From assembly GCA_021371935.1 (NCBI GenBank), contig JAJFVF010000005.1:33222-97221 (forward strand): DNA of 64,000 nucleotides. Reading direction: 5' to 3'. Position 1 is the first letter of the stretch. Each line of letters opens with the position of its first letter. The DNA comes from a bacterium. GTDB lineage: Bacteria > Armatimonadota > UBA5829. The translations under genes and the position numbers were made by a program. Shown in pieces: positions 3,864-62,405 of the stretch. The notes below the pieces were generated by a model that searched no databases, had not been told where the DNA came from, and saw only the letters and a list, made by a program, of their open reading frames with translations.

Positions 3864-3876
3864 TGCGATTTCTGAT

Positions 3877-3904
3877 GAACCTTTGCCTGGTGTGCGGTGT
3901 CTTG
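3877..3904 (+). promoter_or_regulatory. Candidate ECF-type promoter upstream of the sigma/polymerase pair
   Basis: GAACCT (3877-3882) and GTCTTG (3899-3904) are 16 bases apart. This matches the general ECF pattern (GAACTT-N16-TCTGA-like in the sigma-E family). It would give a very short leader that still contains the GGAGGG of the sigma gene. Autoregulation by the encoded sigma factor is inferred, not shown. Confidence 0.4.
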
Positions 3905-3923
3905 AGTTATGGAGGGCGTTTTG

Positions 3924-4520
3924 ATGCGGTCCGATATGGATCTTCTGCAGGCGATACAACAGCAAGACACTGACGCGTTCGAGGTATTTTTCGAGCGCCA
4001 TCGCGAGCGTGTCCGGCTTCATATCAGCAAAATCCTTCGCAATCCGGATGCGACAGAGGATGTTTTGCAGGAGACGTTCCTGAGAGTATGGCAGCACGCC
4101 GACCAATGGGACCACAGCGGCGCATGCATATCCTGGCTGCTTAAAATAGCCACAAATCTCGCGCTCAACAGCCTGCGATCATGGCGGCGAAAAAGGGAAG
4201 TGCCGCTGGAAGGACACAGCTCTACCGGTGAGCAGGAAAACTCTTCAGTCCCCGAGTGGATGGTGGATGAAGCGACTATTGGACCCGAAGAAGCTCTGGA
4301 GATATCGGAGCGGTTGGCAATGGCCAGGCGGTTGGTAGACGATCTGCCGGAAGAAAAACGTGAAGTGATCCGGCTTGTGCACGAGTCGGATATGGGAATC
4401 GGCGAAGCTGCGCAGACTCTGGGAATACCGGAAGGGACAATCAAATCGCGCCTTCATAATGCACGCAAACATCTTGCCCGGCAATGGGACAAGATATGCT
4501 CCGAATGGGAGGAACTCTGA
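3924..4520 (+). CDS. ECF-type RNA polymerase sigma factor coupled to the fused polymerase
   Basis: A 198-residue sigma factor with region 2 (about residues 4-80: AFEVFFERHRERVRLHI, then DATEDVLQETFLRVWQHAD) and region 4 (about 135-190: LPEEKREVIRLVHESDMGIG, then GIPEGTIKSRLHNARKHL). There is no region 1.1 or 3, as in group 4 sigma factors. The start at 3924 is chosen because GGAGGG (3911-3916) lies 7 bases upstream; an ATG at 3909 precedes that site. No anti-sigma gene adjoins it. Instead its stop codon overlaps the start of the fused RNA-polymerase-like gene (TGATG), so the two products are probably made together. Inference: it is the dedicated specificity factor of that enzyme. Confidence 0.92.
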   Translation: MRSDMDLLQAIQQQDTDAFEVFFERHRERVRLHISKILRNPDATEDVLQETFLRVWQHADQWDHSGACISWLLKIATNLALNSLRSWRRKREVPLEGHSSTGEQENSSVPEWMVDEATIGPEEALEISERLAMARRLVDDLPEEKREVIRLVHESDMGIGEAAQTLGIPEGTIKSRLHNARKHLARQWDKICSEWEEL

Positions 4521-7500
4521 TGCAAGGCTCATACACAGCACCATGGCATAAAGCATCTTTCGATCACTTTGTGAATCAAAAACTACCGGAACTGCTCGCT
4601 GCAAAGCTTCCTCTTGCCGGATATAATGCCGAACAAGTGGATGATTACACATGTCGTGTGACAATTTCAATAGATGCAAACGATAACGAATTCAATGTGA
4701 TATATGACATACTCAGCCCAGACAATGAGGGGATTTTTCGAGTTGACGACAGGCCGCGAGTGGTGGTGCCGATTGCATCATCCGCTCACCTGGATAAAGC
4801 CGAGATCAAATGCGTCGGTGAGCAGCTATATGACTATATTGAGGAGCGTATTGGAGAAACCGGACACGATACGCCCCCACCGGATGAGGATTTTATACGC
4901 ACAATACTGCCTCTGGATATGTGGGTCCGCAGCCTTATAACATCCGCGGATGGTGACTACGACCACTGGGCGACTGGGCAAGCTCAGGATACAACCAACT
5001 GGCTGGCTGCAATAGCCCATCTAAGGCGAATTTTGATCGAAGACATAGAGGATGTCGTGACTCCGAGCCAGTTTGGCCGGGTATGCCCGTTCCAAACACC
5101 GGAAGGCCCCAACATCGGCCATATCTTCAGTATGGCTCTGGGAGCACGGATTGAAAACGGCAAAATCGAGATATTCGACAACTGCCCAAGCGCGAAGCTG
5201 GGACTCTCGGCATCCACAGTCCCTCTGCTTGAACATAACAATCCTGTCCACCAGTTGATGGGGGTCAACATGATGCGGCAGTGGATTCCGCCGATCAACC
5301 CGGAACAGGCAATGGTGCAAACAAGTAATGAGCCGGACGTGCCCGATTTCTGGTGCGGATACAACCTGCTTACTGCGTTCATCTTCTGGGGACCAGAGAC
5401 ATACGAAGACGGCATTATAATCAGCGAATCAGCAGCCAAGCGAATGCATTATGATATACCCGTAGAGGTCGGAGATAAATTCAGTAACCGGCATGGCGCA
5501 AAGGGTGTGATCGGAAACATATTGCCGGATGACGAGATGCCGCATATGACGGACGGCACGCCTGTCGAACTGGTCTTCAGTTTTTGCGGAATCGATAAAC
5601 GCCTTAACTTCGGTCAGATCCGTGAAGCCCTCCTCGGCAGGATCGCGTATGCTGAAGGCAAGCCCATTATTGCGCCGCCGTTTGAAGGACCGTCCGAATC
5701 AGAGCTTAAAGAGCGCCTGGCAAAATCCGGGCTGCCCGATGATGGTATGGAGACCTTAACCAACGGCAAGGATGGTGAGCAACTTGCGCGCCGGAGCACT
5801 GTGGGATGGGTCTACTGGGGCCGGACCGTTCATATCGCATCCTATAAGATTCATTATGCCGTCAGCCCAGACGAACGGCTCAATCTGCAGGGCGAGTATG
5901 AATATCACGCTATGCGAGATATCGGAGCATATGCTAATATCGCTGAGACATACAACTTGCGATCTGTGGAGCGTGAAGACAGCCACACACTAGCAAAACG
6001 GGCAGCCGAGCACACCGTCGAATTGCCCGGACCGACAACACCTATGTTCGACAGGCTCAAAAAACACTTGAATGCGACAGGCATAAGCGCCGATTTCACC
6101 GGAAACAGTGTTGAGTTTAAAAAAACAGGCATTGAGGGTGACAGGCTCAACCTGGCATGCGCAGTCAGAGACCCATGGTCGGCTGGGCATGAGGTAACTG
6201 AAGTCGGTGTAATCGAAAACATTCCAGAATATCAATCACTGGTAGATATCAATGATAAGATGAGGCGTCTGCTGGCAACCAAAGCACCTGATAGTCTCAA
6301 GAGTAAGCTGAAAGCTGATTTGGAAACAGCAATAGAAGATTACTTCGATGCGCTCATATCTCACAAACAGATGTGCTTTTTTAATCAGGTGCTATTTAGT
6401 GGCAGAACAGTCCTATCGCCCGCTTCAGACCTGCATGCAGACCAGGTCGGTATACCGGATGAAATGGCTCGGGCGCTCTTTGGACCATTTGTGGAAAAGA
6501 AGACCTGCAAGCCTCTGAAGGATATGAAGGATGATGAGGCGTCACAAACCATAGACGAGATCATGGCGGACTCATGGCTAATTATAAATCGAGCGCCAAC
6601 GTTTATGCCTACCTGTCTGCTGGCTTTTCATCCCATCCGAGTGCCGGGTAGATCGATCCGCCTGCACCAGATCGCATGTATGCTCCTAAACAGCGACAAT
6701 GACGGCGACCAGGCTGCCGTCTTCCTTCCGCTTACAGATGAAGCTCAGCGCGAAGCAGGTGAACTGATGTCGATAGCAGGTCACTTGAGGCGTGATCACT
6801 CGCTGATAAGATGGATCAGCCCGACAAATGAAGCCATGTGGGGACTTGCCCAGCTAAGCCGAAGCACAGCGGGTCTGGACAAGATCGAAACAATAATCGG
6901 AGCCGAAATCGGCACTACCGGGTGCTTAATAACCAGAGACAAGGTTATAAGTGCGCTCAGCAAGTTACTCGGACGAGATGGAGTTGATGCTGCTATATCG
7001 GCCTGCGAGCAGCTTATGCGATTGGGATTTGAAGTATGCAAATCATCGGGCGCATCACTGAGCCCGTTTGCCGGATCGAGTCTGAAAAATGGGACTGAAG
7101 TCGACAAGGTCACTGAACTGATAGAGTCCGACACCGATTTCGACTCTGATGACATAGGTCCCCAACTTATCTCTGCAAAGAGCGGGGCTCGCAGTTCGGT
7201 GGAAAGTATCCGAAAACTCATTGGACCCTATGGACAGGCAACAGATGCATCAAACAGCAGTGTTTATATTTCAGGCGGGTTCAGAGATGGTATGAAGCTG
7301 GATCAAATATGGACGTTAGTCGGCGATACACGCAAGAAACTATCACAAGTTGCGCAGACGCTTCAGATCCACTATGTCTACGGTGCACAGGAGCTTAAAC
7401 TCGCGCAAGGTTATGGCGTGCTGGCAAGGGCGATGCGGTCCGAAAAACCTGGAGTGGTTTTTGCAAATGCAGCCGTCCGCAATGAAACAGACCCGCTGGC

Positions 7501-7543
7501 AGATATAGACAGCAGGCTGTTTGTAGGGCTGCAAACCCCATAG
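4520..7543 (+). CDS. Miniature single-chain RNA polymerase: fused beta and beta' catalytic cores
   Basis: A 1007-residue protein joining both double-psi beta-barrel halves of multisubunit RNA polymerase. Beta part: ATGQAQDTTNWLAAIAHLRR, then TPSQFGRVCPFQTPEGPNIG (from 181), YEDGIIISES (295-304), and GDKFSNRHGAKG, whose K320 and K328 match the two active-site lysines of E. coli beta (1065 and 1073, same spacing). Next come GTPVELVF and RLNFGQIREALLG, then a C-terminal clamp-like HAMRDIGAYANIAETYNLRS. Beta' part: a shortened clamp-helix-like stretch (DINDKMRRLLATKAPDS), GRTVLSPASDLHADQVGIP (628 on), INRAPTFMP, and NSDNDGDQ (724-731) with the three Mg-binding Asp at 726, 728 and 730. It ends with F-loop SGARSSVESIRKL (888 on) and bridge helix GGFRDGMKLDQIW (919 on). 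The beta lobes, trigger loop, jaw and beta' C-terminus appear absent. Start at 4520 has GGGAGGA upstream and overlaps the sigma stop. Confidence 0.9.
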   Translation: MQGSYTAPWHKASFDHFVNQKLPELLAAKLPLAGYNAEQVDDYTCRVTISIDANDNEFNVIYDILSPDNEGIFRVDDRPRVVVPIASSAHLDKAEIKCVGEQLYDYIEERIGETGHDTPPPDEDFIRTILPLDMWVRSLITSADGDYDHWATGQAQDTTNWLAAIAHLRRILIEDIEDVVTPSQFGRVCPFQTPEGPNIGHIFSMALGARIENGKIEIFDNCPSAKLGLSASTVPLLEHNNPVHQLMGVNMMRQWIPPINPEQAMVQTSNEPDVPDFWCGYNLLTAFIFWGPETYEDGIIISESAAKRMHYDIPVEVGDKFSNRHGAKGVIGNILPDDEMPHMTDGTPVELVFSFCGIDKRLNFGQIREALLGRIAYAEGKPIIAPPFEGPSESELKERLAKSGLPDDGMETLTNGKDGEQLARRSTVGWVYWGRTVHIASYKIHYAVSPDERLNLQGEYEYHAMRDIGAYANIAETYNLRSVEREDSHTLAKRAAEHTVELPGPTTPMFDRLKKHLNATGISADFTGNSVEFKKTGIEGDRLNLACAVRDPWSAGHEVTEVGVIENIPEYQSLVDINDKMRRLLATKAPDSLKSKLKADLETAIEDYFDALISHKQMCFFNQVLFSGRTVLSPASDLHADQVGIPDEMARALFGPFVEKKTCKPLKDMKDDEASQTIDEIMADSWLIINRAPTFMPTCLLAFHPIRVPGRSIRLHQIACMLLNSDNDGDQAAVFLPLTDEAQREAGELMSIAGHLRRDHSLIRWISPTNEAMWGLAQLSRSTAGLDKIETIIGAEIGTTGCLITRDKVISALSKLLGRDGVDAAISACEQLMRLGFEVCKSSGASLSPFAGSSLKNGTEVDKVTELIESDTDFDSDDIGPQLISAKSGARSSVESIRKLIGPYGQATDASNSSVYISGGFRDGMKLDQIWTLVGDTRKKLSQVAQTLQIHYVYGAQELKLAQGYGVLARAMRSEKPGVVFANAAVRNETDPLADIDSRLFVGLQTP

Positions 7544-7552
7544 TAATTTCAC

Positions 7553-7580
7553 GCCCCACGCAACTTCCTCGGCGTGGGGC
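7553..7580 (+). terminator. Hairpin after the fused polymerase gene
   Basis: GCCCCACGC (7553-7561) pairs perfectly with GCGTGGGGC (7572-7580). It lies 10 bases after the stop codon and has no strong T-run, so it is a terminator or mRNA-stabilising stem. Confidence 0.55.
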
Positions 7581-7635: not shown

Positions 7636-7664
7636 TTGACGACACTGCTGCCTTGCAATATAAT
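7636..7664 (+). promoter_or_regulatory. Strong sigma-70 promoter for the zinc-ribbon gene
   Basis: TTGACG (7636-7641), 17 bases, then TATAAT (7659-7664). It separates the following gene from the polymerase operon. Confidence 0.7.
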
Positions 7665-7727
7665 TTTGGGGTATAAAGTGGTAAATTGTGGTATATAGGG
7701 ATACCATTGCACCAAAGGAGCTCCGAA

Positions 7728-8351
7728 ATGCCCGCCAAATCAGAGAAAATGGATACAGTTCGGGAAATTTGCGTTGATCCCAAACCAAATGGCCTTAGAG
7801 CAGTTTATCTGGTCGAAACACGCTCAGAAAATGAAGAGCGAGAAATTGCCAGACTCTTTTCCGAACTGGAACCCGAACTTATGATCAGGCAGCTATCAAA
7901 AGGAAGACTCGTCAGCTATGTCGTACAGGCACATGAATCAAATGCAAGTATGCTCAATGAAATCGAAGATGTTCTGAAAAACAACTATGCATTTGTCGTT
8001 ACCCAGAGATCGTTTGATGAACTAAGCTGCCGCATCATAAAAGAACTTGCAAGGCATACGGGAAGTAGACTCCTGCCGATTCCGAAATGCAATATCTGTG
8101 GCAATGTGGACCCATTTCCAACTACCACCGTCAACCTCTCTGATAATGATGGGGGTGTGCTGGCAACCAGGAGTTATTGCGCAAGATGCACGGCAGAAGC
8201 AGCCGCAGCCGGCAACAAGGTAAACAACATAGAATTTATTAAGTCCCTGCTGGCGGCAGATGAGCATAATTTCGATGGGATCAAACACGCCAGACTTGTT
8301 CGACATCCATCACGCAAACGACCTATACGATATCGCGTATTTGATATTTAG
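7728..8351 (+). CDS. Unrecognised protein with C-terminal zinc ribbon
   Basis: The 207-residue protein belongs to no family I recognise. Residues 1-110 are mixed alpha/beta, with the segment RSENEEREIARLFSELEPEL. The C-terminal half has two CxxC pairs, CNIC (121-124) and CARC (151-154), 26 residues apart, which would hold one zinc. The tail is basic (RLVRHPSRKRPIRYRVFDI). The start at 7728 has AAAGGAG at proper spacing; a frame to 7686 lacks one. It has its own near-consensus promoter, so co-regulation with the fused polymerase is not implied by the DNA. A role in nucleic-acid binding is possible from the zinc ribbon and basic tail. Confidence 0.72.
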   Translation: MPAKSEKMDTVREICVDPKPNGLRAVYLVETRSENEEREIARLFSELEPELMIRQLSKGRLVSYVVQAHESNASMLNEIEDVLKNNYAFVVTQRSFDELSCRIIKELARHTGSRLLPIPKCNICGNVDPFPTTTVNLSDNDGGVLATRSYCARCTAEAAAAGNKVNNIEFIKSLLAADEHNFDGIKHARLVRHPSRKRPIRYRVFDI

Positions 8352-8380
8352 AATTTTATATTTTAGATTTGGGAATTAGA

Positions 8381-8806
8381 TTGTTTTCAGGCGCATACGA
8401 ACATACAGTAGATGATAAAGGACGAACCGTCATTCCTGCGCGCTTCCGGCAAAAGCTGGGTGAGCGATTCGTAATGACAAAAGGTCTGCACGGCTGTTTG
8501 TGGGTGTTTCCTGAAAATACTTGGACGCAAATTCAACAAAAACTCACACCTAAAACGCTCCTGGACGAACGAGGAGTCAAGCTCGAACGATATTTCCTGG
8601 GCGCAGCATGTGAGTGTACGCCCGACAGGCAGGGCCGCGTGCCGATGTCTTCGATCTTAATGAACCACGCCGGCATAAAGACCGGCGATGCGATTTCAAT
8701 AATCGGATTGAGCGATAAAGTCGAAATATGGAGCACGTCCAGATGGGATGAGTTTAATGCAGGATTGACCGACGATGTTATCGCGGAACTGGGCAGGGAT
8801 GCCTAG
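8381..8806 (+). CDS. mraZ: MraZ transcriptional regulator
   Basis: A 141-residue double AbrB/SpoVT-type DNA-binding protein. Both halves show the DxxGR pattern: MFSGAYEHTVDDKGRTVIPA at the N-terminus and CTPDRQGRVPMSS in the second repeat. MraZ normally heads the dcw cluster and represses it by binding GTG repeats. Here no mraW/rsmH, ftsL or murE follows; instead there are hairpins and a convergent dedA gene. The TTG at 8381 is chosen because MF(S/M)G is where the family begins; another TTG at 8369 adds four residues. The Shine-Dalgarno is weak. Confidence 0.9.
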   Translation: MFSGAYEHTVDDKGRTVIPARFRQKLGERFVMTKGLHGCLWVFPENTWTQIQQKLTPKTLLDERGVKLERYFLGAACECTPDRQGRVPMSSILMNHAGIKTGDAISIIGLSDKVEIWSTSRWDEFNAGLTDDVIAELGRDA

Positions 8807-45545: not shown

Positions 45546-46325
45546 TCACTTGCAACCTCCAGGTCCACAACTGCCACCGCTGCATCCGCCGCCGTTCATC
45601 GACTTCATCAGGCTCGCCATAACGCTCGCCTTGGACACTGTTCCATCGAATTTGCCCAATGTCCTGCCTGGAGGAGCCATAACCACAAGTTGTGCATTGG
45701 CAGAATTAACGATGCCCAATTGCTTCAACAGCTTTGATTCTGACCGATCCGACGAATCTATTTTTACTATCTCCACCGCACCGCCGAGTCTGGAATCGGA
45801 TTTTATGCCACGAGCTGTGGCGAGGCATTCTTTGTTATGCTTTGTCTTGGAGCTTTGCAGACATATTGCTGCGAGCTTGCGATCCTGCATCACTTTGAGC
45901 ACTGCAGCAGTACCTTTGGAGACAAAGGCACTCGATAATTTGGACTTATCGATTTCCCTCGGGAATCCACCAGTGATAGCTCCGTTTGGCGCAATCACAA
46001 GGGTCAGTGGGATCGGCGAACGATCCGCGCCATATCGAGAGACTACCTGACGATTTGCCTTGTCGCCAACGTTTACACTGACGAAATTTGCCCGACTTGC
46101 ATACTTTCCCTGGATTGATTTCACATCAGCCAGCATTGCCTTGCTGGCGCTATCGTTGCTCTTGAAAAACGTAACGAACGCATAACGATTCTGCTTGGCT
46201 GCGGCTCGAATTGCGCTTTCCGCGGGCGGTGTCTTGGCTTCGGCTGTCACACCGAGCATTGTACACGCGACCCCGATGACAACAGCTGCAATTGCAGCAA
46301 GACGCGCTGTTCTTTTGGTCTGCAT
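45546..46325 (-). CDS. Exported thioredoxin-fold protein 1, CxxC lost, Cys/Gly tail
   Basis: The 259-residue protein has a signal peptide (AAIAAVVIGVACTMLGVTAE). A thioredoxin-like domain follows, in which the CxxC position reads FFKSNDSASKAM. The cis-Pro loop is present (RSPIPLTLVIAPNGAITGG). The second half (about 130-240) contains ICLQSSKTKHNKECLA. It ends in GGGCSGGSCGPGGCK. It is paralogous to the two following proteins at 47049 and 47904. Without CxxC, disulfide reductase activity is unlikely, and the tail may bind metal. ATG at 46325 has GGAGG upstream. It lies between arsR and the ABC exporter. Confidence 0.78.
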   Translation of the reverse strand: MQTKRTARLAAIAAVVIGVACTMLGVTAEAKTPPAESAIRAAAKQNRYAFVTFFKSNDSASKAMLADVKSIQGKYASRANFVSVNVGDKANRQVVSRYGADRSPIPLTLVIAPNGAITGGFPREIDKSKLSSAFVSKGTAAVLKVMQDRKLAAICLQSSKTKHNKECLATARGIKSDSRLGGAVEIVKIDSSDRSESKLLKQLGIVNSANAQLVVMAPPGRTLGKFDGTVSKASVMASLMKSMNGGGCSGGSCGPGGCK

Positions 46326-46367
46326 TAAGAATTCCTCCATAGCATCATAGTTGCAAACTGTTTCAAT

Positions 46368-46784
46368 CTAGCACTCCCCAGCCGCTCCAGTCCTCCTCTT
46401 GCATGCCGTAGTCTCACAACATGCGGGTTCGGTTTTCTCCGGCCACTTGTTCAAGTCGAATACGTTATCGAAATCGGCGCGGAACTGCTTCATGGCTTTG
46501 CGGTCCAGAGAGTAGTAAGTCCACTTCCCTTCCTTTCGGGAAGTGATGAGCTTTGCCTGCTTCAAAGTCTTCAAATGAAATGATACGTTGGACTGAGTGA
46601 GATCAAGCGCCGGCGTGAACTCACATACACACATTTCACCACGAGTCATAAGCAAGTAGACTATGTGCAGCCGAGTTAGGTCCGCAAGTGCTTTGAACCC
46701 ATCGGCGAGACAACAAAGGCTACTATCGTCACAGAGTATAGCTTTATCCCCTGTCGGGGCTTGAAACCGCTCTTGAATAGACAC
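46368..46784 (-). CDS. ArsR/SmtB-family repressor 1
   Basis: A 138-residue winged-helix metalloregulator. The alpha-3 metal-site region MTRGEMCVCEFTPALDLTQS has CVC, the As(III)-binding motif (ELCVCDL-like). The HTH segment SNVSFHLKTLKQAKLITSRK follows. Extra Cys pairs occur at the N-terminus (LCDDSSLCCLADG) and C-terminus (EPACCETTACKRR). It probably controls its own operon (thioredoxin-fold 1 and the ABC exporter). GTG start with GAGGAGG. Its closest relative in the window is the repressor at 48817. Confidence 0.9.
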   Translation of the reverse strand: MSIQERFQAPTGDKAILCDDSSLCCLADGFKALADLTRLHIVYLLMTRGEMCVCEFTPALDLTQSNVSFHLKTLKQAKLITSRKEGKWTYYSLDRKAMKQFRADFDNVFDLNKWPEKTEPACCETTACKRRTGAAGEC

Positions 46785-46896
46785 GTTACCTCCTCGGTGA
46801 ATGTCTCATCAACACATCAGGATGCGTTGATGCGTTCTTTCACAATACCCACTGCTACAGAGTTCTACGTGATGGAAAAACGATGAGTTCCTGAAA

Positions 46897-46916
46897 GCAT
46901 CAATAATATTTGATGC
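46897..46916. promoter_or_regulatory. Candidate ArsR operator
   Basis: Perfect inverted repeat GCATCAA-N6-TTGATGC in the gap upstream of ArsR repressor 1. A second, looser pair CATCAAC/GTTGATG lies at 46807-46832, next to its start. Confidence 0.5.
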
Positions 46917-47048
46917 GACACCACCATGGTTATCCAAGGATAATATTCTGGAAACACAGTTGTCTGATCGCGGCCTAGAACTATGAGAGGGCATTGCAAC
47001 CGTAATGCCCCCACCAAATTTGTAATGCTAGCTCGGGGCTGGTTCGCA

Positions 47049-47834
47049 CTATCTGCCACAGCCACCCGAGCCACAACCTCCGCTACCACATGTTCCCCCA
47101 CTGAGCGCTTTTATAAGTGTGGCTGCTATCGAATCGGTCGTGGCGGTCCCGTCAAATGTCCCTATGATTCTGCCTGGAGGGGCAATGACCACCATCTGTG
47201 CGTTCTCTGTGCTGGCATCCACTTTCAAGGTCTGAATGAGTTTTGACTCGGAGCTATCGGATGGATCAATCTTGACGATTTCCAGTGCGTTTTGGAACTG
47301 CGCCCCGTACTTTAATCCTTCAGCCGCTGCAAGACTCTCCTTATTGAGCTTTGTCTTAGAGTTCTGTATGCAGATCGCAGCGAGCTTGCCGTCCTGGAGT
47401 ACTTTCAACACTTCAGCCATCCCGTTCGAGACAAATGCATCGGAGATGTCCGTCTTGTTGATCGCGTTCGGATATCCTGCGGTCACGGCACCGTTGGGAG
47501 CAATGACGAGGGTCAGTGGCATTGGAGCGCGATCTGCGCCATATTTTGTGATGATTTCATTGTGGACAGCGTTGCCAACATCTGCAATGACGAAGTTGGC
47601 GCGACTGGAGTAGTTTGCCTGGAGCTTCTTTGCTTCTTCGAGCATCTTCGTGCTTGCCGCGTCGTTCTGCTTGTAGAATGTCACAATTGCGTAGCGACCC
47701 TGCTTTGCGGCCGCCTGAATAGCAGTTTCAGCGGGAGATGTCTTAGTCGCAGCCATTGCCATAGGCGCTGCGCATACCAATGCAGTGATGACCGCTGCCG
47801 TCATGGCGAATCCGACGATCCTGTTCATTTTCAC
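47049..47834 (-). CDS. Exported thioredoxin-fold protein 2, CxxC lost, Cys/Gly tail
   Basis: A 261-residue paralogue of the proteins at 45546 and 47904. The signal peptide includes ITALVCAAPMAMA. The thioredoxin active site is replaced (FYKQNDAASTKM), while the RAPMPLTLVIAPNGAVTAGY block remains. The tail is GGTCGSGGCGSGGCGR. The central ICIQNSKTKLNKESLA corresponds to ICLQSSKTKHNKECLA in protein 1. GTG start (47834) has GGAGGAAATAACA upstream. It follows protein 3 after 69 bases in the same direction. Confidence 0.76.
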   Translation of the reverse strand: MKMNRIVGFAMTAAVITALVCAAPMAMAATKTSPAETAIQAAAKQGRYAIVTFYKQNDAASTKMLEEAKKLQANYSSRANFVIADVGNAVHNEIITKYGADRAPMPLTLVIAPNGAVTAGYPNAINKTDISDAFVSNGMAEVLKVLQDGKLAAICIQNSKTKLNKESLAAAEGLKYGAQFQNALEIVKIDPSDSSESKLIQTLKVDASTENAQMVVIAPPGRIIGTFDGTATTDSIAATLIKALSGGTCGSGGCGSGGCGR

Positions 47835-47903
47835 TGTTATTTCCTCCAGTTGTGTATATTGATTACGGTTCTAATAGAGAGATTTTGGTCTAGATGCCGT
47901 AGC

Positions 47904-48776
47904 CTACGGTCCGCATCCGCCCGCACCGCAGCTACCTCCGCCACAACCACCGCCCCCCAGCGCACTCTTGAGGGTGGTCATGATAGTGTCCATTGTGTCA
48001 GTACTGGCGAACTTGCCGACCAGCTTGCCGGGCGGGGCGAGTACGAGTAGTTGGGCATCAGTGGAACGAGCATCGATCTTGCATTCCTTGATGAACCTGA
48101 ATTCCGCAGGGTCCGATGGATTGATCTTCACAATCTCAACGGCTCCGCCTAGTTCCGGGGCAGCTTTTAGTTCCTCGGCGGTAGCCAAACTCTTCTTGTT
48201 GTTCTTAGTCCTGGGGCCTTGGATACAGACGGCGGCGAGCTTGCGGTCCTGCAAAACCTTGATTACACTCGCCATTCCATTAGAAACGAAGGCGCTGGAG
48301 AAGTCGGTATTCGTTATCTCACTGGGATAGCCTGCCGTGACTGCTCCATTGGGAGCTATCACGAGGGTTAAGGGTATAGGGGAGCGATCAGCACCATACT
48401 GTAAAACCAACTCTTGCTGGATAGGGCTATCGACATCGACGCTGACGAAGCTGGCGCGGCGAGAGAATTTGGCTTGCACCGGTTTCATTGCTGCTTGCAT
48501 CTTCTTGCTGGCAGCATCGTCTTTCCGGTAAAACGTAACGAACACATAGCGGTCCTTCTTTGCAGCCGCGCTGATTGCTGCGCTTTCGGGCGAAGCCTTT
48601 AGTGCAGGCTCGGGCTTAACCTGAGGTTTTTCGGTCACTGCTGTCGTCGTATCAGTGGTATTGGATGCCTGAACCTCATTCTTATCGATCTTGCTATTTC
48701 TTGTTTTGGCCAGGCCGATTATGACCAATGCAATCACCAGCACGACAACGATATAGATAATCCTGTTCTTCTGCAT
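47904..48776 (-). CDS. Membrane-anchored thioredoxin-fold protein 3, CxxC lost, Cys/Gly tail
   Basis: A 290-residue paralogue with an uncleaved-looking N-terminal anchor (RIIYIVVVLVIALVIIGLAK) and a Thr/Glu/Lys-rich linker. It has FYRKDDAASKKM at the former CxxC, the RSPIPLTLVIAPNGAVTAGY block, and a tail GGGGCGGGSCGAGGCGP. It differs from proteins 1 and 2 in the anchor, so it may hold the fold at the membrane. Start ATG at 48776 (or TTG 48779) has AAGGGGGC. It is downstream of ArsR repressor 2. Confidence 0.74.
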   Translation of the reverse strand: MQKNRIIYIVVVLVIALVIIGLAKTRNSKIDKNEVQASNTTDTTTAVTEKPQVKPEPALKASPESAAISAAAKKDRYVFVTFYRKDDAASKKMQAAMKPVQAKFSRRASFVSVDVDSPIQQELVLQYGADRSPIPLTLVIAPNGAVTAGYPSEITNTDFSSAFVSNGMASVIKVLQDRKLAAVCIQGPRTKNNKKSLATAEELKAAPELGGAVEIVKINPSDPAEFRFIKECKIDARSTDAQLLVLAPPGKLVGKFASTDTMDTIMTTLKSALGGGGCGGGSCGAGGCGP

Positions 48777-48816
48777 CAAGTGATGCCCCCTTTAACCTTA
48801 GTAACGGCTCATCTTA

Positions 48817-50268: not shown

Positions 50269-51147
50269 CTATCCGCAACAACAGCAACTTTTGGGTTTTG
50301 TGGCTCTGACGAATGCGCTGACGAACGAGCTCGCCAGTTCCGCAATTCCGTCCATGCCAAACTGCTGGATAGCTTCATCCGGCAGTAGGCCGTTTGCATC
50401 TTCTGCGGAGTAGGTCTTCACAATCTCGACGCCGGCATCAGTGAATCCGGCTTTCAGCAGCTTGAGCTTGTATTCATTGATCTCAAGCGCACCAGCAATG
50501 CACCCGGTCCATAGGCCGACATGTTCTTTGACCGCATCCGATACCTGCTTGGTAAGGACGATGTCAGCTACGGCGAATCTGCCGCCGGGTTTCATTACCC
50601 TGAACGCCTCTCGAAGCACCTGATCCTTGTTGGTGGAAAGATTTATAACGCAGTTGCTGATAATCACATCCACTGAAGCATCGGGCAGCGGGATGTTCTC
50701 TATCTCGCCCTTTAAGAACTCGACGTTTGTAATTCCCGATTCAGCCTTGTTCTTCTCAGCAAGCGCAAGCATCTCGTCGGTCATGTCGAGTCCGTAAGCT
50801 TTACCGGTAGGGCCGACTCGCTTTGCCGAAAGCAGCACATCGATACCGCCGCCACTGCCTAGATCGAGGACAACTTCTCCAGGATTGAGATTGGCCAGAG
50901 CCATGGGGTTCGCGCAGCCCATCGACGCAAGCAGCGCCTCGACTGGTATCCCCTGAGTCTCAGCCTCCGAATAAAGGTCACGAGTTATGGCGTCTTTGCT
51001 CGTTCCACTGCCGCAGCAGCTTGTTTCTTTGCGCTCGGCGGCGTTCACCGCAACCTGTCCATATTTCTCTTTTACGAACTCCTTGATGTCATTGCCGTTG
51101 GGAGTGGAACTGCCTCCGCAGCAGCATCCACACTTGTTATCAACCAT
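50269..51147 (-). CDS. arsM: Arsenite methyltransferase
   Basis: A 292-residue SAM-dependent enzyme that methylates As(III). The Rossmann motif is [20 protein letters not shown], followed by [20 protein letters not shown] and [20 protein letters not shown]. The ArsM Cys residues occur in [20 protein letters not shown] and [11 protein letters not shown]. The N-terminus has CGCCCGG and TSCCGSGTS and the end is KPKSCCCCG; these Cys-rich ends are unusual. The start at 51147 has AGGTGAGG upstream. It belongs to the arsenic operon running from arsR3. Confidence 0.92.
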
Positions 51148-51159
51148 TTTATACCTCAC

Positions 51160-51480
51160 CTATTCTTTGATAATATCTACAGAAGCCAGAGCAGGCAGAG
51201 CAAGTCCGGCAGCCACCTGCATCACCTTGAATATCCCACACGGGACGATGCAACCAGCACAGCAGCCTTTGAGCGTCTTACGAACGACCTGATGAATAGC
51301 GCCGTCAAACCCAGCGCCGATTTCAGTGTATCCGTCTACCTGTGGAAAGCCCTCCGCGAGTCGTTTGATGTTTTCGCAGTCGCTTTCAATCTCGAACTTC
51401 ACGTTTTGCATGTCGTCCGATTCAGCAGTGACAGTCGTAGTGAACCCACATACGCCTGCCTTGATTGTAGCCTTTGTCAT
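51160..51480 (-). CDS. DUF6951-type small protein
   Basis: A 106-residue protein of a group I associate with arsenic or methyltransferase neighbourhoods (DUF6951). It starts MTKATIKAGVCGFTTTVTAE, has a middle SDCENIKRLAEGFPQVDGYT, and ends with a CCAGCIVPCGIFKVMQVAAG cluster that may bind metal. Function unknown. The ATG at 51480 follows the CMD gene after 4 bases. The in-frame extension to 51594 overlaps that gene and is not used. Confidence 0.75.
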   Translation of the reverse strand: MTKATIKAGVCGFTTTVTAESDDMQNVKFEIESDCENIKRLAEGFPQVDGYTEIGAGFDGAIHQVVRKTLKGCCAGCIVPCGIFKVMQVAAGLALPALASVDIIKE

Positions 51481-51484
51481 TGAG

Positions 51485-51757
51485 TTACTCTCCACTGCAC
51501 GAACCGCCACTACAGCAGCACGCGCTCGGTGCTTGCTGTTCCTGGGCCATTCCACCCAGCTTCTCATCAGCGTATTTGTCCATGTTCTCGTCACCTTGCT
51601 TGCGTATCATACGTGCTATACTGACGGCATTTCTCATGTCCGAGTCGGATGCGCCAGCTTTCCGCGCTTCCTCCACATGGTAATCGAGGCACGGTTGGCA
51701 TTTCGCCACTACCGAGGCTGCGATTGAAATCAGTTCTCTTGTTTTCGGGTCTAACAT
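51485..51757 (-). CDS. Carboxymuconolactone decarboxylase/AhpD-like protein
   Basis: A 90-residue member of the CMD/AhpD family, with the redox CxxC and proton-relay His in SVVAKCQPCLDYHVEEARKA. The C-terminal tail ACCCSGGSCSGE is a Cys-rich addition that repeats the theme seen in neighbours. Family members reduce peroxidases or decarboxylate. In ars clusters related proteins are often seen. Start at 51757 with AAGGAG; operon with arsM genes. Confidence 0.85.
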   Translation of the reverse strand: MLDPKTRELISIAASVVAKCQPCLDYHVEEARKAGASDSDMRNAVSIARMIRKQGDENMDKYADEKLGGMAQEQQAPSACCCSGGSCSGE

Positions 51758-51784
51758 CGAGCAATCTCCTTGTTATAGATGTTA

Positions 51785-52225
51785 TCATTTGGCACTGTCT
51801 ATGGGAATGCGAAACAACCGCGCGGATACGGGACAAGCCCCACGGAACTCCTCGGATGCCGACAATGCTTCTGGAGCATCTGAGCGTGAAATTTCATCAA
51901 AACATGAGCGGCTGAGCAGATATGGAATCGTCGTGGTCAACGCATAGGCGTCCCGGATTCCGTCGATCTGTGCCTGTTTCAAGATATGTGATATGAGTTG
52001 ACGGCCATACCCTTGTCCGCGCATTGATGGGGCAATCACCAGAGAGCGCAGCAAGGCATCCGGAGGATACGCTTCATATCCCACCGCGCCAACGAGCGTT
52101 CCCTGCGCCTCAAGGACATAGAGATGATCACGATTCTCTGCAATACCGTCAACCGGCAGAGACATCTCTTCAAGCAATGAGATCACTGCGGGCATATCTG
52201 CATCAGTCGCTTTTCGAATAATCAT
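51785..52225 (-). CDS. arsN2: Arsinothricin-type N-acetyltransferase (GNAT)
   Basis: A 146-residue GNAT enzyme with the acetyl-CoA motif VIAPSMRGQGYGRQLISHIL and a middle strand GTLVGAVGYEAYPPDALLRS. The C-terminal block SRSDAPEALSASEEFRGACP with SARLF matches ArsN2, whose relatives acetylate arsinothricin or related aminophosphinates. The name rests on this C-terminal pattern and the ars context. CGGAGG precedes the start. It lies 59 bases after the universal stress gene end. Confidence 0.8.
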   Translation of the reverse strand: MIIRKATDADMPAVISLLEEMSLPVDGIAENRDHLYVLEAQGTLVGAVGYEAYPPDALLRSLVIAPSMRGQGYGRQLISHILKQAQIDGIRDAYALTTTIPYLLSRSCFDEISRSDAPEALSASEEFRGACPVSARLFRIPIDSAK

Positions 52226-52272
52226 ATCGTCCTCCGAGCAAACATAGAGTTTTGCTTGTTACCTGCCTCTGG

Positions 52273-53142
52273 TCAGCGAACTGGTGGAACCAGCAGGACC
52301 GGCGACTGCGAAAGGCGCACCACATTATGCGCTACACTTCCAGCAAAAATGTCCGAGATGAACCCCCGCCCGTGGGTGCCCATCACTACAATCGACGGGC
52401 AGTTGTTTTGAACGTAATCAACAATCTCCTTAGCTGGAGAGCCGTATGGAATCTCTAGATTGACCTCTTCAACACCAAGGTCGTGCAAGCGCAATTCCAT
52501 TCTCTCAAGACGCGAACGGTCTATTGTATTGAATTCCTGCAGCCTGTCCTCGAGATGTGGTCGGATGCGAGAGACATCCTGAACATGCATGAGTGTCATC
52601 TTTCTGCACCCGCTTCTTGCGAACTCTTCGACATACTGGAAAGCTCGTTCCGCATTATCTGAAAAGTCGGTCGCATACAGCACGTGAGAAAGCACATCGG
52701 TTGATACCACCTGGCAGCACTGCGGCTCTTCTTCCAAAATCTGGAGCCTCACGACCAGGACAGGAATCTCCGCCCGGTGCACAACGTCTGTGGCAACACC
52801 GCCCAGCGCAATGTCGCGCGCAAGGCTATGGCCGTGAGAGCCGATGACGATGGCCTTGCAGCCGGTATCAATCGCAAGTCGTGTTATCTCAACGCCGGGG
52901 ACACCAACCGGCGTTTCCACCGAAACTTTAAACCCCTCGGCCTCAAGAGCGGCCTTTTGAGCGTTGAGCCGGGGTGCCGCTTCATCTCTTAGCGCCTCGC
53001 TCAATCCCACTAGATGCTTAACGTAAATTACATAAGTCAGGACTACTTCGCGGCAGCCAAGCACATGCAGGGTGCCGACATATTCCACTACTTTGTCAGA
53101 AGCCACTGACAGATCGGTTGCCAAAAGCACTTTGCTAAACAC
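52273..53142 (-). CDS. Double-domain universal stress protein
   Basis: A 289-residue protein of two UspA domains. Each has a start VLLATDLS / VLYATDFSDNAERAF, and the ATP-binding loops VIGSHGHSLARDIALGGVAT and VMGTHGRGFISDIFAGSVAH (G-x2-G-x9-GS/T pattern). Usp proteins bind ATP and act in stress survival. It sits between ACR3 and arsN2 in the operon. GTG at 53142 is chosen because AAGGAGG lies 8 bases upstream; a start at 53160 adds six residues. Confidence 0.88.
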   Translation of the reverse strand: MFSKVLLATDLSVASDKVVEYVGTLHVLGCREVVLTYVIYVKHLVGLSEALRDEAAPRLNAQKAALEAEGFKVSVETPVGVPGVEITRLAIDTGCKAIVIGSHGHSLARDIALGGVATDVVHRAEIPVLVVRLQILEEEPQCCQVVSTDVLSHVLYATDFSDNAERAFQYVEEFARSGCRKMTLMHVQDVSRIRPHLEDRLQEFNTIDRSRLERMELRLHDLGVEEVNLEIPYGSPAKEIVDYVQNNCPSIVVMGTHGRGFISDIFAGSVAHNVVRLSQSPVLLVPPVR

Positions 53143-53179
53143 TATCTTGGCCTCCTTCACTTCGGTGAGCGCTAATAAG

Positions 53180-54238
53180 CTAACTCACCGTCTGCTGCTT
53201 AAAGTATTTCCTTTGGAAGAACAGGGCAACATTCACCAGTCCAATCAACGCCGGAACTTCGACCAGCGGCCCGATAACCGCCGCAAACGCCTGTCCTGAG
53301 TTGATACCGAAAACTGCCACCGCGACCGCAATGGCAAGTTCAAAGTTGTTGCTTGCCGCAGTGAACGACAGTGTTGCTGTCTTGGGATAATCCGCCCCGA
53401 TCTTCTTGCCCATATAGAAGCTGACCAGGAACATCACGACAAAATAGATCAAGAGCGGAATGGCGATTCTGACAACATCCAATGGCAGCCGCACGATATA
53501 TTCGCCTTTGAGCGAGAACATGACCACAATGGTGAAGAGCAACGCGATCAGAGTGATGGGACTGATCCTCGGGATGAAACGCTTCTCATACCACTCGCGC
53601 CCCTTTGTCTTGAGCCCAACCACTCTGCTCAGGATGCCCGCAATGAACGGGATGCCGAGATAGATGAACACGCTTTTAGCTATCTCGCCAATAGTCACAT
53701 GCACCGTACTCGCCTTCAGTCCGAAAAGAGGTGGGAACACTGTTATGAAGACGTAAGCATAGACCGAGAAGAAGAGCACCTGGAAGATCGAGTTGAACGC
53801 CACAAGGCCAGCCGCATACTCCGTATCACCCTTGGCAAGCTCGTTCCAGACAATCACCATTGCGATGCACCGCGCCAAGCCGATCATAATGAGGCCGACC
53901 ATAAATTCAGGGTAATTCCGCAGGAAGATGATCGCCAGAACAAACATCAGTATCGGGCCCACTATCCAGTTTTGCACAAGTGACAGTGTCAGAATCCGCC
54001 AGTTGCGGAACACCTCGCCAAGCTCCTCATACTTCACCTTAGCAAGCGGCGGGTACATCATCAGAATAAGCCCAATGGCTATTGGGATATTCGTTGTGCC
54101 AACCGAAAAACGGTTCCAGAAACCGGCAGTGCCGGGTACCAAATAGCCTGCTCCCACGCCGATGGCCATCGCCAGGAATATCCACAGCGTGAGATACCTG
54201 TCCAGAAATGAAAGTCTTTTAGTGATTCCTTCGCTCAT
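53180..54238 (-). CDS. acr3: ACR3-family arsenite efflux permease
   Basis: A 352-residue inner-membrane transporter with ten transmembrane helices. Motifs include [40 protein letters not shown] (the conserved Cys of the As(III) site) and [20 protein letters not shown]. It exports As(III) and, in some members, Sb(III). ATG at 54238 lies 1 base after the arsC stop, so arsC and acr3 are coupled. Its terminal region ends near the Usp gene. Confidence 0.95.
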
Positions 54239-54239
54239 A

Positions 54240-54668
54240 CTAATCCTCACCCGTTGTCATCTCATCAATCAATTTCTCTACTCTCGTCTTTACCTGATCC
54301 CGAATCGCCCGAACCTTCTCTATCGGCTGCCCATTTGGATCTTCAAGGCCCCAGTCCTCGGACTCGACAAACACAGCCGGACAGACTGCCCCGCCATGCT
54401 CGACATCATTGAGGTTCACACCGCAGCCCATCGTGATGACCTTGTCTGCTGACTCGACCATCTCCGGTGTCATCACCTTGGGGTAATGGCCGCTCATGTC
54501 GTAGCCGATCTCTTCCATCGCAGCCACGGCTTGCGGGTTGAGAGTTCCGCTAGGTGCGGTTCCTGCTGACTCTGCAATGATCCTGCCATCGCCGAGTTTC
54601 TTCGCGAACGCCTCAGCCATCTGGCTCCGGCCTGAATTGTGTATGCAGACAAACAGAGCTTTTTTCAA
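54240..54668 (-). CDS. arsC: Arsenate reductase, thioredoxin-coupled type
   Basis: A 142-residue enzyme of the low-molecular-weight tyrosine phosphatase fold. The P-loop is [20 protein letters not shown] (CX5R-type, C-x-H-N-S-G-R). A second functional block is [20 protein letters not shown] with Cys, and [20 protein letters not shown] is at the end. It reduces arsenate to arsenite using thioredoxin, and several small thioredoxins are encoded nearby. It follows arsR3 by about 40 bases. Confidence 0.93.
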
Positions 54669-61237: not shown

Positions 61238-62341
61238 CTAGATGAGAAAGTTGAATATGTATCCTACAATCACTATTCCGAGAGCAACGAAACCGACGAA
61301 CAGCCAGATGAGTGGCATCCGGATGACCTTCCGCAACATCACGAGTTCCGGAATCGAGATTCCGATCACCGACATCATGAATGCAAGCGACGTTCCAAGA
61401 GCGGCTCCTTTGGCCAGAACGGCCTGCACTATCGGCATCACACCTACGGCACTTGCATACAACGGCAGGCCAAGAATCACCGCCACCGGTACGTTCCACC
61501 AGGCTTCCTTGCCCATATACTGGCTGACGAATGCCACTGGGATATAGCCGTAGATTGCAGCACCGAGTGCAATTCCACCCACAAGATAGTGCCACGTGCC
61601 TGCGAGTATTTCCTTTACGGCTGTGGTACCAGAATCTACCCGGTCGTTCCAGGTCATAGCACTAGTGACGTCCTGGCTTGGAGTGTCAACTGGACTCTGT
61701 CCAGCACTTGTCTGTAGATCGGCAACCCATGATTCAAGAAACCTCTCCGGTCGCATGCGTGCTATGAGCATTCCTGAGATGACAGCCTTTGTCATCCCAA
61801 GCACAGCATATAGCGTGGCTATCTTCCAACCATACATCCCGTATAGCATCGCTAGCGCCACTTCATTGACGACGGGACAAGATATAAGAAATGACATCGT
61901 GATCCCGAGAGGTATTCCTGACTGCAGGAAACCGAGAAAGAGCGGGATTGCAGAGCAGGAGCAGAAAGGAGTCGGCACTCCAAGTATCGCGGCAAGAACA
62001 TATCCGTAGGTTCCTCTACGACCCGCAATCATCGTACGTATCCGCTCTGGAGTCAGGAACGTGCGCGTGATCCCGACAATAAAGGTAATAAGCACGAGCA
62101 GCATTAGCACCTTCGGCGCGTCGGCCACAAAGAACTCGACAGCGCCGGCAAGGTGACCGCCTTTGGCAAACCCCAATAGAATGTAGGTGAACCATCTCGC
62201 AAACCGGTCTAGCTGAAGATAAAGGAGCGTCCAAGCTGACAATCCCAGCAGCACCCACAGGAATAGCAGACTGCGGCGCATCCCACGCATCTGTTTCGAC
62301 GTCTGTGCGATCTCTTCTCTTTGTTCGTCTACATTACTCAC
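61238..62341 (-). CDS. arsP: ArsP/DUF318-type permease
   Basis: A 367-residue inner-membrane permease with about ten helices. The signature blocks are LGVPTPFCSCSAIPLFLGFL (the CxC in TM4 typical of the ArsP/YraQ family) and GLPLYASAVGVMPIVQAVLA. ArsP exports trivalent organoarsenicals; related members move other metals or are unassigned. The next gene (61210) is a thioredoxin-like protein. GTG at 62341 follows GGGAGG. Confidence 0.82.
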   Translation of the reverse strand: MSNVDEQREEIAQTSKQMRGMRRSLLFLWVLLGLSAWTLLYLQLDRFARWFTYILLGFAKGGHLAGAVEFFVADAPKVLMLLVLITFIVGITRTFLTPERIRTMIAGRRGTYGYVLAAILGVPTPFCSCSAIPLFLGFLQSGIPLGITMSFLISCPVVNEVALAMLYGMYGWKIATLYAVLGMTKAVISGMLIARMRPERFLESWVADLQTSAGQSPVDTPSQDVTSAMTWNDRVDSGTTAVKEILAGTWHYLVGGIALGAAIYGYIPVAFVSQYMGKEAWWNVPVAVILGLPLYASAVGVMPIVQAVLAKGAALGTSLAFMMSVIGISIPELVMLRKVIRMPLIWLFVGFVALGIVIVGYIFNFLI

Positions 62342-62405
62342 GCTGCTACCTCCCGGCAATCAGTCCTGCTGGCATTACAGTTGCTGCTAACAACTACTTT
62401 GCAGG

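What the first reader, a model, noticed from the sequence alone, without database searches (positions are those of the whole stretch)
3924..7543. Two-gene system: ECF sigma factor translationally coupled to a miniature beta/beta' fused RNA polymerase
Seen: one 1007-residue chain carries both the beta and the beta' active-site halves in the same order as rpoB-rpoC, and its ATG overlaps the sigma stop codon. Known: fused rpoB-rpoC proteins of Helicobacter and Wolbachia are full length, while YonO-type phage enzymes are shorter and lack bacterial-type motifs such as TPEGPNIG. This protein is about a third of the usual combined size, keeps bacterial-type motifs and brings its own sigma factor. Inference: an accessory polymerase with dedicated promoters, possibly of mobile origin. 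I know of no described system of exactly this form, but could not search.
Basis: partly seen in the sequence, partly recalled or inferred. Interest (0 to 1): 0.96.

Follow-up and report, generated by a model that had tools for sequence, protein, structure and literature searches.

The report
Miniature RNA polymerase with own sigma
Besides its normal RNA polymerase genes, this bacterium carries a two-gene unit, a sigma factor joined to a one-chain polymerase about a third of the usual size, which recurs side by side in genomes labelled as at least seven bacterial phyla and likely works as a second, self-contained transcription machine that switches on its own genes.

Summary
Window 3924-4520 encodes an ECF sigma factor; 4520-7543 a 1007-residue chain carrying the beta and beta' catalytic barrels; its ATG overlaps the sigma stop. 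It belongs to an unnamed family: all 31 family loci of a named-genome scan, and all 10 carriers among 101 genomes, have an ECF sigma upstream on the same strand; the 91 non-carriers have no sigma of comparable score. Catalytic aspartates and lysines are nearly invariant in 211 aligned rows, dN/dS is about 0.1, and AlphaFold gives a confident RNAP-like model. No beta lobe, flap or trigger loop is detectable; bridge helix and clamp helices, the usual sigma-2 dock, remain. Normal rpoB/rpoC lie elsewhere in the genome.

New here: TGAAC-N15/16-GTGTC precedes the sigma gene in 29 of 39 loci (0.04 expected). In the window's genome this is the only site above noise, so the one predicted target is the operon itself.

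No close relative was found in IMG/VR, phage or plasmid collections; mobile origin is unsupported. Best reading: a chromosomal second holoenzyme that transcribes its own operon. Untested: activity, sigma binding, and which core enzyme uses the promoter. Ten literature searches found no description.

The parts
3876..3901 (+). Predicted autogenous promoter TGAACC-N15-GTGTC (-35 3876-3881, -10 3897-3901)
   Evidence: Strict motif conserved upstream of the linked sigma in 29 of 39 loci; place
3909..3913 (+). Position 7 nt after GTGTC where other members carry GTRRA; here ATGGA, which does not match
   Evidence: GTRRA 6-9 nt after GTGTC in 14 of 29 loci, shuffle mean 0.63, max 5, element chosen after seeing the loci; the window is a miss
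3924..4520 (+). ECF sigma factor gene (ORF can start at 3909; ATG 3924 follows a ribosome-binding-like GGAGG)
   Evidence: Pfam Sigma70_r2 and r4_2; NCBIfam sigma70-ECF superfamily above cut-off
3987..4187 (+). Sigma region 2
   Evidence: Pfam PF04542, residues 27-93 of ORF 3909
4323..4475 (+). Sigma region 4
   Evidence: Pfam PF08281, residues 139-189 of ORF 3909
4520..7543 (+). Single-chain miniature beta-beta' RNA polymerase, 1007 aa
   Evidence: AF2 model pLDDT 91.8, pTM 0.88
4979..5152 (+). Beta fork region with TPEGPNIG (Rpb2_3)
   Evidence: Pfam; aligns to E. coli beta 474-581
5462..5857 (+). Beta barrel part with the GDK and RHGxKG lysines; no flap insert before it
   Evidence: Pfam Rpb2_6; profile aligns to E. 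coli beta 786-823 and 1054-1147 with nearly nothing between
6224..6355 (+). Clamp-helix pair, equivalent of the usual sigma-2 dock (docking itself inferred)
   Evidence: Aligns to E. coli beta' from 266; helices 569-585 and 591-612 in the model
6695..6709 (+). Catalytic triad, here DNDGD
   Evidence: D726 in 209, D728 in 211 and D730 in 211 of 211 aligned rows
7298..7357 (+). Bridge-helix equivalent; the chain ends about 60 residues later, with no trigger-loop match
   Evidence: Aligns up to E. coli beta' 799; helix 927-946 in the model
7553..7580 (+). Strong hairpin just after the stop codon; not a family feature
   Evidence: -19.8 kcal/mol, z -5.0; 7 of 33 loci incl. the window have z below -2 there

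Best explanation
The window encodes an ECF sigma factor and, overlapping its stop codon, a 1007-residue single-chain two-barrel RNA polymerase that keeps the catalytic residues, and the two are predicted to form a dedicated second holoenzyme that would transcribe at least its own operon from a TGAAC-N16-GTGTC promoter. Steps: (1) shown: the pair is encoded together and occurs together. (2) inferred: translational coupling supplies the two near 1:1. (3) inferred: sigma region 2 docks on the retained clamp helices; with no flap, region 4 must be held by another surface or by DNA alone. (4) predicted: the complex opens the conserved promoter and starts about 7 nt after the -10 element. (5) inferred: the two barrels and bridge helix elongate RNA without a trigger loop, as YonO does, so processive but error-prone synthesis is likely. 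(6) inferred: because the only strong site in this genome is its own promoter, the unit is a positive-feedback switch, started by an unknown signal or by leaky host transcription. Other, weaker targets are not excluded.
For: Linkage: all 31 family loci of the named-genome scan (L035-L065) have the sigma upstream on the same strand. 10 of 101 genomes carry the polymerase, and the same 10 give the ten best sigma hits (114-445 bits); the best hit in the other 91 is 89.5 bits. An in-frame start overlaps the sigma stop by 1 or 4 nt in 21 of 39 loci (L039 not judged there). The 38 linked sigmas are one side of a branch against the 20 nearest unlinked ECFs, support 87, not starred (L064 left out); sigma and polymerase distances correlate r 0.91 over 34 loci, Mantel 0 of 2000. 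Activity: triad D 209, 211 and 211 of 211; beta lysines 203 and 208; R361 208 (rows include duplicates). dN/dS about 0.11 and 0.10 against G004. Structure: pLDDT 91.8; the 50 listed Foldseek rows are RNA polymerase entries. Promoter: strict motif in 29 of 39 loci, 27 at spacing 16, simulation mean 0.04, 0 of 33 downstream controls; strict 0 of 20 and relaxed 2 of 20 before unlinked sigmas, against relaxed 37 of 38 before linked ones. The motif was noticed by eye in these same loci before it was counted. In G000 the profile gives 27.1 bits for this site, which helped build it, and 12.4 for the next.
Against: Nothing was tested at the bench. The promoter is of ordinary ECF type: in two relatives without the polymerase (G006, G010) the best profile hit lies before a different ECF sigma, which would have to use the host polymerase. 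Fixed -35/-10 spacing suggests that sigma region 4 is held rigidly, normally by the flap, which this chain lacks. Sigma residues specific to the linked group (13 positions) cluster at 64-71, by recall the -10 recognition loop, and show no clear switch in the core-binding part. The GTRRA start element is absent in the window and found in 14 of 29 loci. The own site tops the profile list in 6 of 8 carriers tested, is second in G034 and is not listed for G041; G003 and G076 were not tested. In 10 carriers the looser pattern finds 22 sites besides 7 own promoters, against 11 control sites, so other targets are possible. A polymerase whose only strong target is itself has no obvious benefit. No complex could be modelled.
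Confidence: 0.6

Rival explanations
1. The sigma works with the host polymerase at this promoter, and the miniature polymerase is a regulator: it mimics the core's clamp helices and sequesters the sigma, an anti-sigma made from a polymerase.
For: ECF genes are often followed by an anti-sigma gene (established knowledge), and here the polymerase takes that place. The promoter is ECF-typical and similar sites occur before another ECF sigma in non-carriers. The flap that normally holds sigma region 4 is missing.
Against: A decoy needs no catalytic centre, yet aspartates, lysines and barrel residues are nearly invariant in 211 rows, and the chain keeps its length of about 1000 aa in the listed relatives.
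Confidence: 0.2
2. The miniature polymerase is active but does not use promoters: like the eukaryotic RNA-silencing polymerases it copies RNA or extends primers, and the sigma only drives its expression.
For: The flapless, trigger-loop-less architecture recalls QDE-1 and YonO (PMC7824862 section 15 part 1 read).
Against: Sequence is much nearer to bacterial beta/beta' than YonO is reported to be (rpoB model E 4.6e-50), the fork and clamp helices remain, and a sigma is adjacent in the loci examined.
Confidence: 0.1
3. The pair is a cargo or remnant of a mobile element or phage and has no host function.
For: Patchy distribution: two of four congeners lack it; phyla are mixed in the polymerase tree, although no starred branch forces this. 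One congener's copy (G003) has an in-frame stop.
Against: No close relative found in IMG/VR, phages or plasmids; the 65 IMG/VR polymerases that could be placed (of 80 loci kept) fall outside the family's clade, support 100; dN/dS about 0.1; some members on megabase contigs. Neighbours were compared with each other but not searched for integrases or transposases.
Confidence: 0.07
4. Assembly chimera or pseudogene.
For: Most named members come from metagenome-assembled genomes.
Against: Same two-gene layout in dozens of assemblies under purifying selection.
Confidence: 0.01

Closest known systems
Canonical bacterial RNA polymerase beta and beta' (rpoB, rpoC)
   Same: Colinear homologous blocks: E. 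coli beta 474-581, 653-707, 786-823, 1054-1147, 1177-1342; beta' 266-513 and 593-799; same catalytic residues
   Different: One chain of about 1000 aa; no detectable beta lobe, flap, rudder, trigger loop or jaw; far below the family cut-offs (170 vs 896 bits)
YonO of B. subtilis prophage SPbeta (PMC5467207: part 1 of the text and passages read)
   Same: Single chain of about 100 kDa with both barrels and the aspartate triad, no trigger-loop homology
   Different: YonO is prophage-encoded, has homology to only a few catalytic residues, and its paper leaves open whether it needs other factors for promoters; this family is bacterial-like in sequence, was not found in phage collections and is sigma-linked
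Natural rpoB-rpoC fusions
   Same: beta then beta' in one chain
   Different: Those are full-length (recalled) and serve as the cell's polymerase; here about 37% of the length beside a normal rpoB/rpoC
ECF sigma factors with GAAC/GTC-type promoters (promoter form recalled)
   Same: Regions 2 and 4, promoter form
   Different: Downstream partner is a polymerase rather than an anti-sigma factor
Jumbo-phage and P23-45 two-barrel polymerases (PMC7824862 section 15 part 1, PMC10770324 section 12 and passages read)
   Same: Accessory two-barrel polymerases
   Different: Phage genes; PMC7824862 reports no sigma in group 1 jumbo phages; the 65 IMG/VR polymerases placed lie outside this family's clade

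Membership tests
Canonical rpoB/rpoC equivalog (NCBIfam PRK00405, rpoC_TIGR) | Score above the curated cut-off | tested here: not met
   170.3 vs 896 and 97.7 vs 963.5 bits
Fused rpoBC equivalog (NCBIfam PRK14844, PRK09603) | Full-length fusion above the curated cut-off | tested here: not met
   164 vs 4632 and 159.8 vs 5372 bits
Two-barrel RNA polymerase superfamily | Two barrels with DxDxD in one and two lysines in the other | tested here: met
   Pfam Rpb2_6 and Rpb1_2, residue counts, fold
YonO-like single-chain polymerases | No recognisable similarity to bacterial beta/beta' beyond catalytic residues | tested here: not met
   rpoB model E 4.6e-50, rpoC model E 4.2e-28
YonO-like single-chain polymerases | No flap insert in the beta barrel and no trigger loop | tested here: met
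   Nothing aligns to E. coli beta 824-1053 or to beta' after 799; a divergent substitute in the C-terminal 45 residues is not excluded
ECF sigma factors | sigma70-ECF superfamily model above cut-off, regions 2 and 4 | tested here: met
   92.3 vs 42.9 bits; Pfam regions 2 and 4
Active DNA-dependent RNA polymerase | Template-directed RNA synthesis | not testable with these tools
   Needs purified protein
Phage or plasmid polymerase | Encoded by phage or plasmid | tested here: not met
   0 of 65 plasmid and 0 of 32 phage records with matches cover 80% of the query in one place; the 80 IMG/VR loci kept match by segments of at most 47% identity and the 65 placed lie outside the clade

The most novel reading that the evidence does not exclude
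Bacterial chromosomes of several phyla carry a complete second transcription system: a minimal, flapless, one-chain RNA polymerase with its own dedicated sigma factor and its own promoter, which transcribes itself independently of the host polymerase and so forms a self-sustaining switch that could keep running when the host enzyme is blocked.
Probability: 0.42. Interest if true: 0.95.

Novelty: new variant of a known kind. Interest (0 to 1): 0.87.

Why it matters
Bacteria are taught as having one RNA polymerase whose specificity is changed by swapping sigma factors. A cell-encoded second polymerase with a private sigma would break that rule, would be an unusually small sigma-compatible core, and would let one ask directly which parts (flap, trigger loop, alpha subunits) sigma-dependent initiation really needs. 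At about 1200 residues in two chains it would also be a natural orthogonal expression system. Where the listed relatives carry a name it is 'hypothetical protein' or a string of Pfam domain names.

Tried and rejected
Mobile element or phage origin: not supported. Chimera: rejected.

A larger regulon: exact TGAACY-N14-GGTGTC occurs once in G000 and once in G004, both before this operon; with up to one mismatch there are 26 sites (reversed-pattern control 14) and 29 (control 31). Of the other 25 in G000, 24 lie inside ORFs of a simple caller and none has a called gene start within 150 bp. For G004 I examined 10 of 29: its own and 9 inside ORFs. With the looser TGAACY-N15-GTGTC in 10 carriers there were 29 sites, 7 of them own promoters, against 11 control sites; four others are intergenic by the caller (G034 C162, G037 C216, G041 C37, G003 C169), with no common theme seen. 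The profile search scored 150 first-look candidates per genome, so weak sites can be missed. In G034 a site before a peptidase-like gene (read from the sequence, untested) scores above the operon's own, 20.4 vs 17.4 bits.

Shared neighbours: apart from sigma and polymerase, no family recurs in more than 6 of 39 loci; the ORF caller was naive, missed the sigma in some loci and the polymerase in L051 and L055 (one search has both). Terminator hairpin: strong in the window, z below -2 in 7 of 33 loci. Sigma-polymerase fusion proteins: none among 211 rows. Defence-system models: none for the polymerase; two weak hits (CARF3--CARF, E 0.0003 and 0.02) to the sigma. VIA-align rows cover mainly residues 1-530, so the beta' half rests on sequence alignment and Foldseek rows.

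Literature: ten searches in an open-access PMC library; their listings show no paper on a sigma-linked miniature polymerase. PMC10770324 compares 23 two-barrel families in a supplement I could not read and mentions 'derivatives with fused DPBB domains' without naming them in the section I read, so this family may be listed there. Passages of PMC7481178 and PMC7281927 were also seen; the single-chain two-barrel enzymes they name are from phages, from linear plasmids of plants and fungi, and the eukaryotic RNA-silencing type. The 2003 paper of Iyer, Koonin and Aravind was not held; the 2012 review by Iyer and Aravind was not looked up.
Full report
What is there. The window (part of a 3.54 Mb, 22-contig genome, 98% complete) holds at 3909/3924-4520 an ECF sigma factor and at 4520-7543 a 1007-residue polymerase-like chain. 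The second gene's ATG shares one base with the first gene's stop. The chain carries Rpb2_3, Rpb2_6 and Rpb1_2 and matches bacterial rpoB and rpoC models far better than chance but far below their cut-offs. The same genome has ordinary rpoB and rpoC ORFs of 1508 and 1457 aa on contig C8. The nearest named relative (P0003, 81% identical) is labelled Armatimonadota.

It is a family. Among 101 genomes (the window's own and 100 relatives), 10 hold a relative that spans nearly the whole query at 39-100% identity, 9 of them without inner stops. Two protein searches each list 120 relatives, 991-1106 aa long, covering at least 98% of the query; both scored only the roughly 8000 candidates sharing most words, so the totals (3285 and 937 at E 0.001 or better) are neither complete nor all family members. 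Labels of the 31: Armatimonadota, Poribacteria, Latescibacterota, Chloroflexota, Hydrogenedentota, Planctomycetota, Myxococcota, Gemmatimonadota and one unnamed. The Gemmatimonadota sigma (L062) groups with Latescibacterota, so I count seven phyla; three of these rest on one labelled contig each in this scan, and Planctomycetota and Hydrogenedentota are also named.

Linkage. All 31 have an ECF sigma ORF upstream on the same strand. In 28 it is the next gene; in L046 and L047 a 597-aa ORF lies between, in L047 tested as an ABC transporter, and in the broken L064 a 396-aa ORF. In the 101 genomes, carriers and the ten top sigma scores coincide: 114-445 bits against at most 89.5 bits in the 91 others. 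An in-frame start codon overlaps the sigma stop by 1 or 4 bases in 21 of 39 loci (31 named, 7 unnamed, the window; L039 not judged). Linked sigmas form one side of a branch against the 20 nearest unlinked ones (support 87, below the star threshold; L064 left out). Sigma and polymerase distances correlate at r 0.91 over 34 loci, as expected of genes inherited together. No other neighbour family recurs in more than 6 of 39 loci.

Anatomy. Profile alignment to E. coli covers beta 474-581, 653-707, 786-823, 1054-1147 and 1177-1342, then beta' 266-513 and 593-799. Residues 1-90 resemble the beta protrusion only weakly by sequence. Not found (domain names by established knowledge): the beta lobe, the flap between 823 and 1054, beta' before 266, most of the rudder, and all of beta' after the bridge helix, including the trigger loop. 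The helix pair 569-585/591-612 corresponds to the clamp helices, where sigma region 2 docks in known holoenzymes (established knowledge); N276, R281 and P288 (E. coli numbering, mapped by hand) are at least 90% conserved, whereas R275 and E295, recalled as sigma contacts, are not. PMC7824862 (section 15, part 1 read) states that the flap binds sigma or TFIIB and is absent in YonO and the RNA-silencing enzymes; a flapless polymerase with a constant sigma neighbour is therefore unexpected. PMC5467207 (part 1 and passages read) shows that YonO is processive, less accurate, and has no trigger-loop homology, so the missing trigger loop does not forbid activity.

Promoter. TGAAC-N14..17-GTGTC lies before the sigma gene in 29 of 39 loci, 27 at spacing 16 and 2 at 15; first-order simulations gave mean 0.04 and maximum 2 in 500; the opposite strand gave 0 of 39 and stretches after the polymerase 0 of 33. 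With [TC]GAAC-N15..16-G[TC]GTC it is 37 of 38 linked sigma genes (L064 left out) and 2 of 20 unlinked ones; the strict form is 0 of 20 unlinked. I saw the motif by eye in these loci before counting it, and near-copies among the Latescibacterota loci inflate the counts. GTRRA follows GTGTC by 6-9 bases in 14 of 29 loci (near-copies, L064 and L048 left out; shuffle mean 0.63, maximum 5; also chosen after seeing the sites), but not in the window. In the window the site is 3876-3901.

Targets. A 26-site profile scores the window's own site 27.1 bits and the next site in its genome 12.4; in G004 it is 23.7 and 12.2 (both own sites helped build the model). Of 8 carriers searched (10 known), the own site is first in 6, second in G034, and not listed for G041. 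Eight non-carrier genomes gave best hits of at most 14.6 bits. In 10 carriers the looser pattern finds 22 sites besides 7 own promoters, against 11 control sites; those looked at share no theme. So the one well supported target is the operon itself, and further targets are possible. Against exclusivity: in G006 and G010, which lack the polymerase, the best site lies before another ECF sigma, so this promoter form can probably be served by the host enzyme.

Origin. On the two barrel segments, 14 members form one clade with support 100, apart from 65 IMG/VR polymerases (of 80 loci kept, those with both segments) and from E. coli and the genome's own rpoB/rpoC; the nearest row is the larger fused polymerase L066 (support 91, not starred). 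Phages, plasmids and IMG/VR gave no close relative. Presence is patchy: of five congeners including the window's genome, two (G001, G002) lack it although 98% and 100% complete.

Verdict. The main open point is which core enzyme uses the promoter.

Noticed in passing
L067:6660-13364 (Poribacteria WJIO01000321.1) and L066:635-6574 (Latescibacterota JACPJE010000260.1): Single polypeptides of 2234 and 1979 aa that join alpha-type domains (RNA_pol_L, RNA_pol_A_bac, in L067 also RNA_pol_L_2), beta and beta': one-chain alpha-beta-beta' polymerases. L067 has an ECF sigma gene divergent from it at 5571-6122; three other neighbours tested are a propeller protein, a DUF4432 protein and a RuBisCO-like protein. 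Possibly a second, larger sigma-associated polymerase kind.
   Followed up: partly
L068:2-3610 and L069:6831-9776 (Latescibacterota SLHA01000007.1, SLHA01000141.1): Two contig-end ORFs of one genome that hit the polymerase with different parts; perhaps one large fused polymerase split by assembly.
   Followed up: no
L046:2683-4476, L047:6165-7958: A 597-aa ORF, in L047 an ABC transporter with membrane and ATPase domains, inserted between the linked sigma and the polymerase.
   Followed up: partly
G003:C318:77-3130 (L007, L151): Same-genus copy only 49% identical and with one in-frame TAA: a decaying or misassembled second lineage of the system within one genus.
   Followed up: no
L298 (G006) and L299 (G010): In genomes without the miniature polymerase, a different ECF sigma gene is preceded by a similar GAAC..GGTGTCTAAT promoter.
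   Followed up: partly
window 7636-8806: Independent sigma-70-like promoter TTGACG-17-TATAAT (7636-7664; no more such sites in the region than in shuffles), then an unknown 221-aa gene with paired cysteines and an MraZ gene; ORFs of 207 and 148 aa sit at the same places in G004 (homology not tested).
   Followed up: partly
window 45546-48779: Three neighbouring genes of 261-291 aa on the minus strand that look like paralogues by eye, with glycine-cysteine-rich C-terminal tails.
   Followed up: no
window 50269-54250 and 61238-62359: Genes that by eye look like an arsenic-resistance set: a cysteine-rich methyltransferase, an ACR3-like transporter and a permease (no family search).
   Followed up: no
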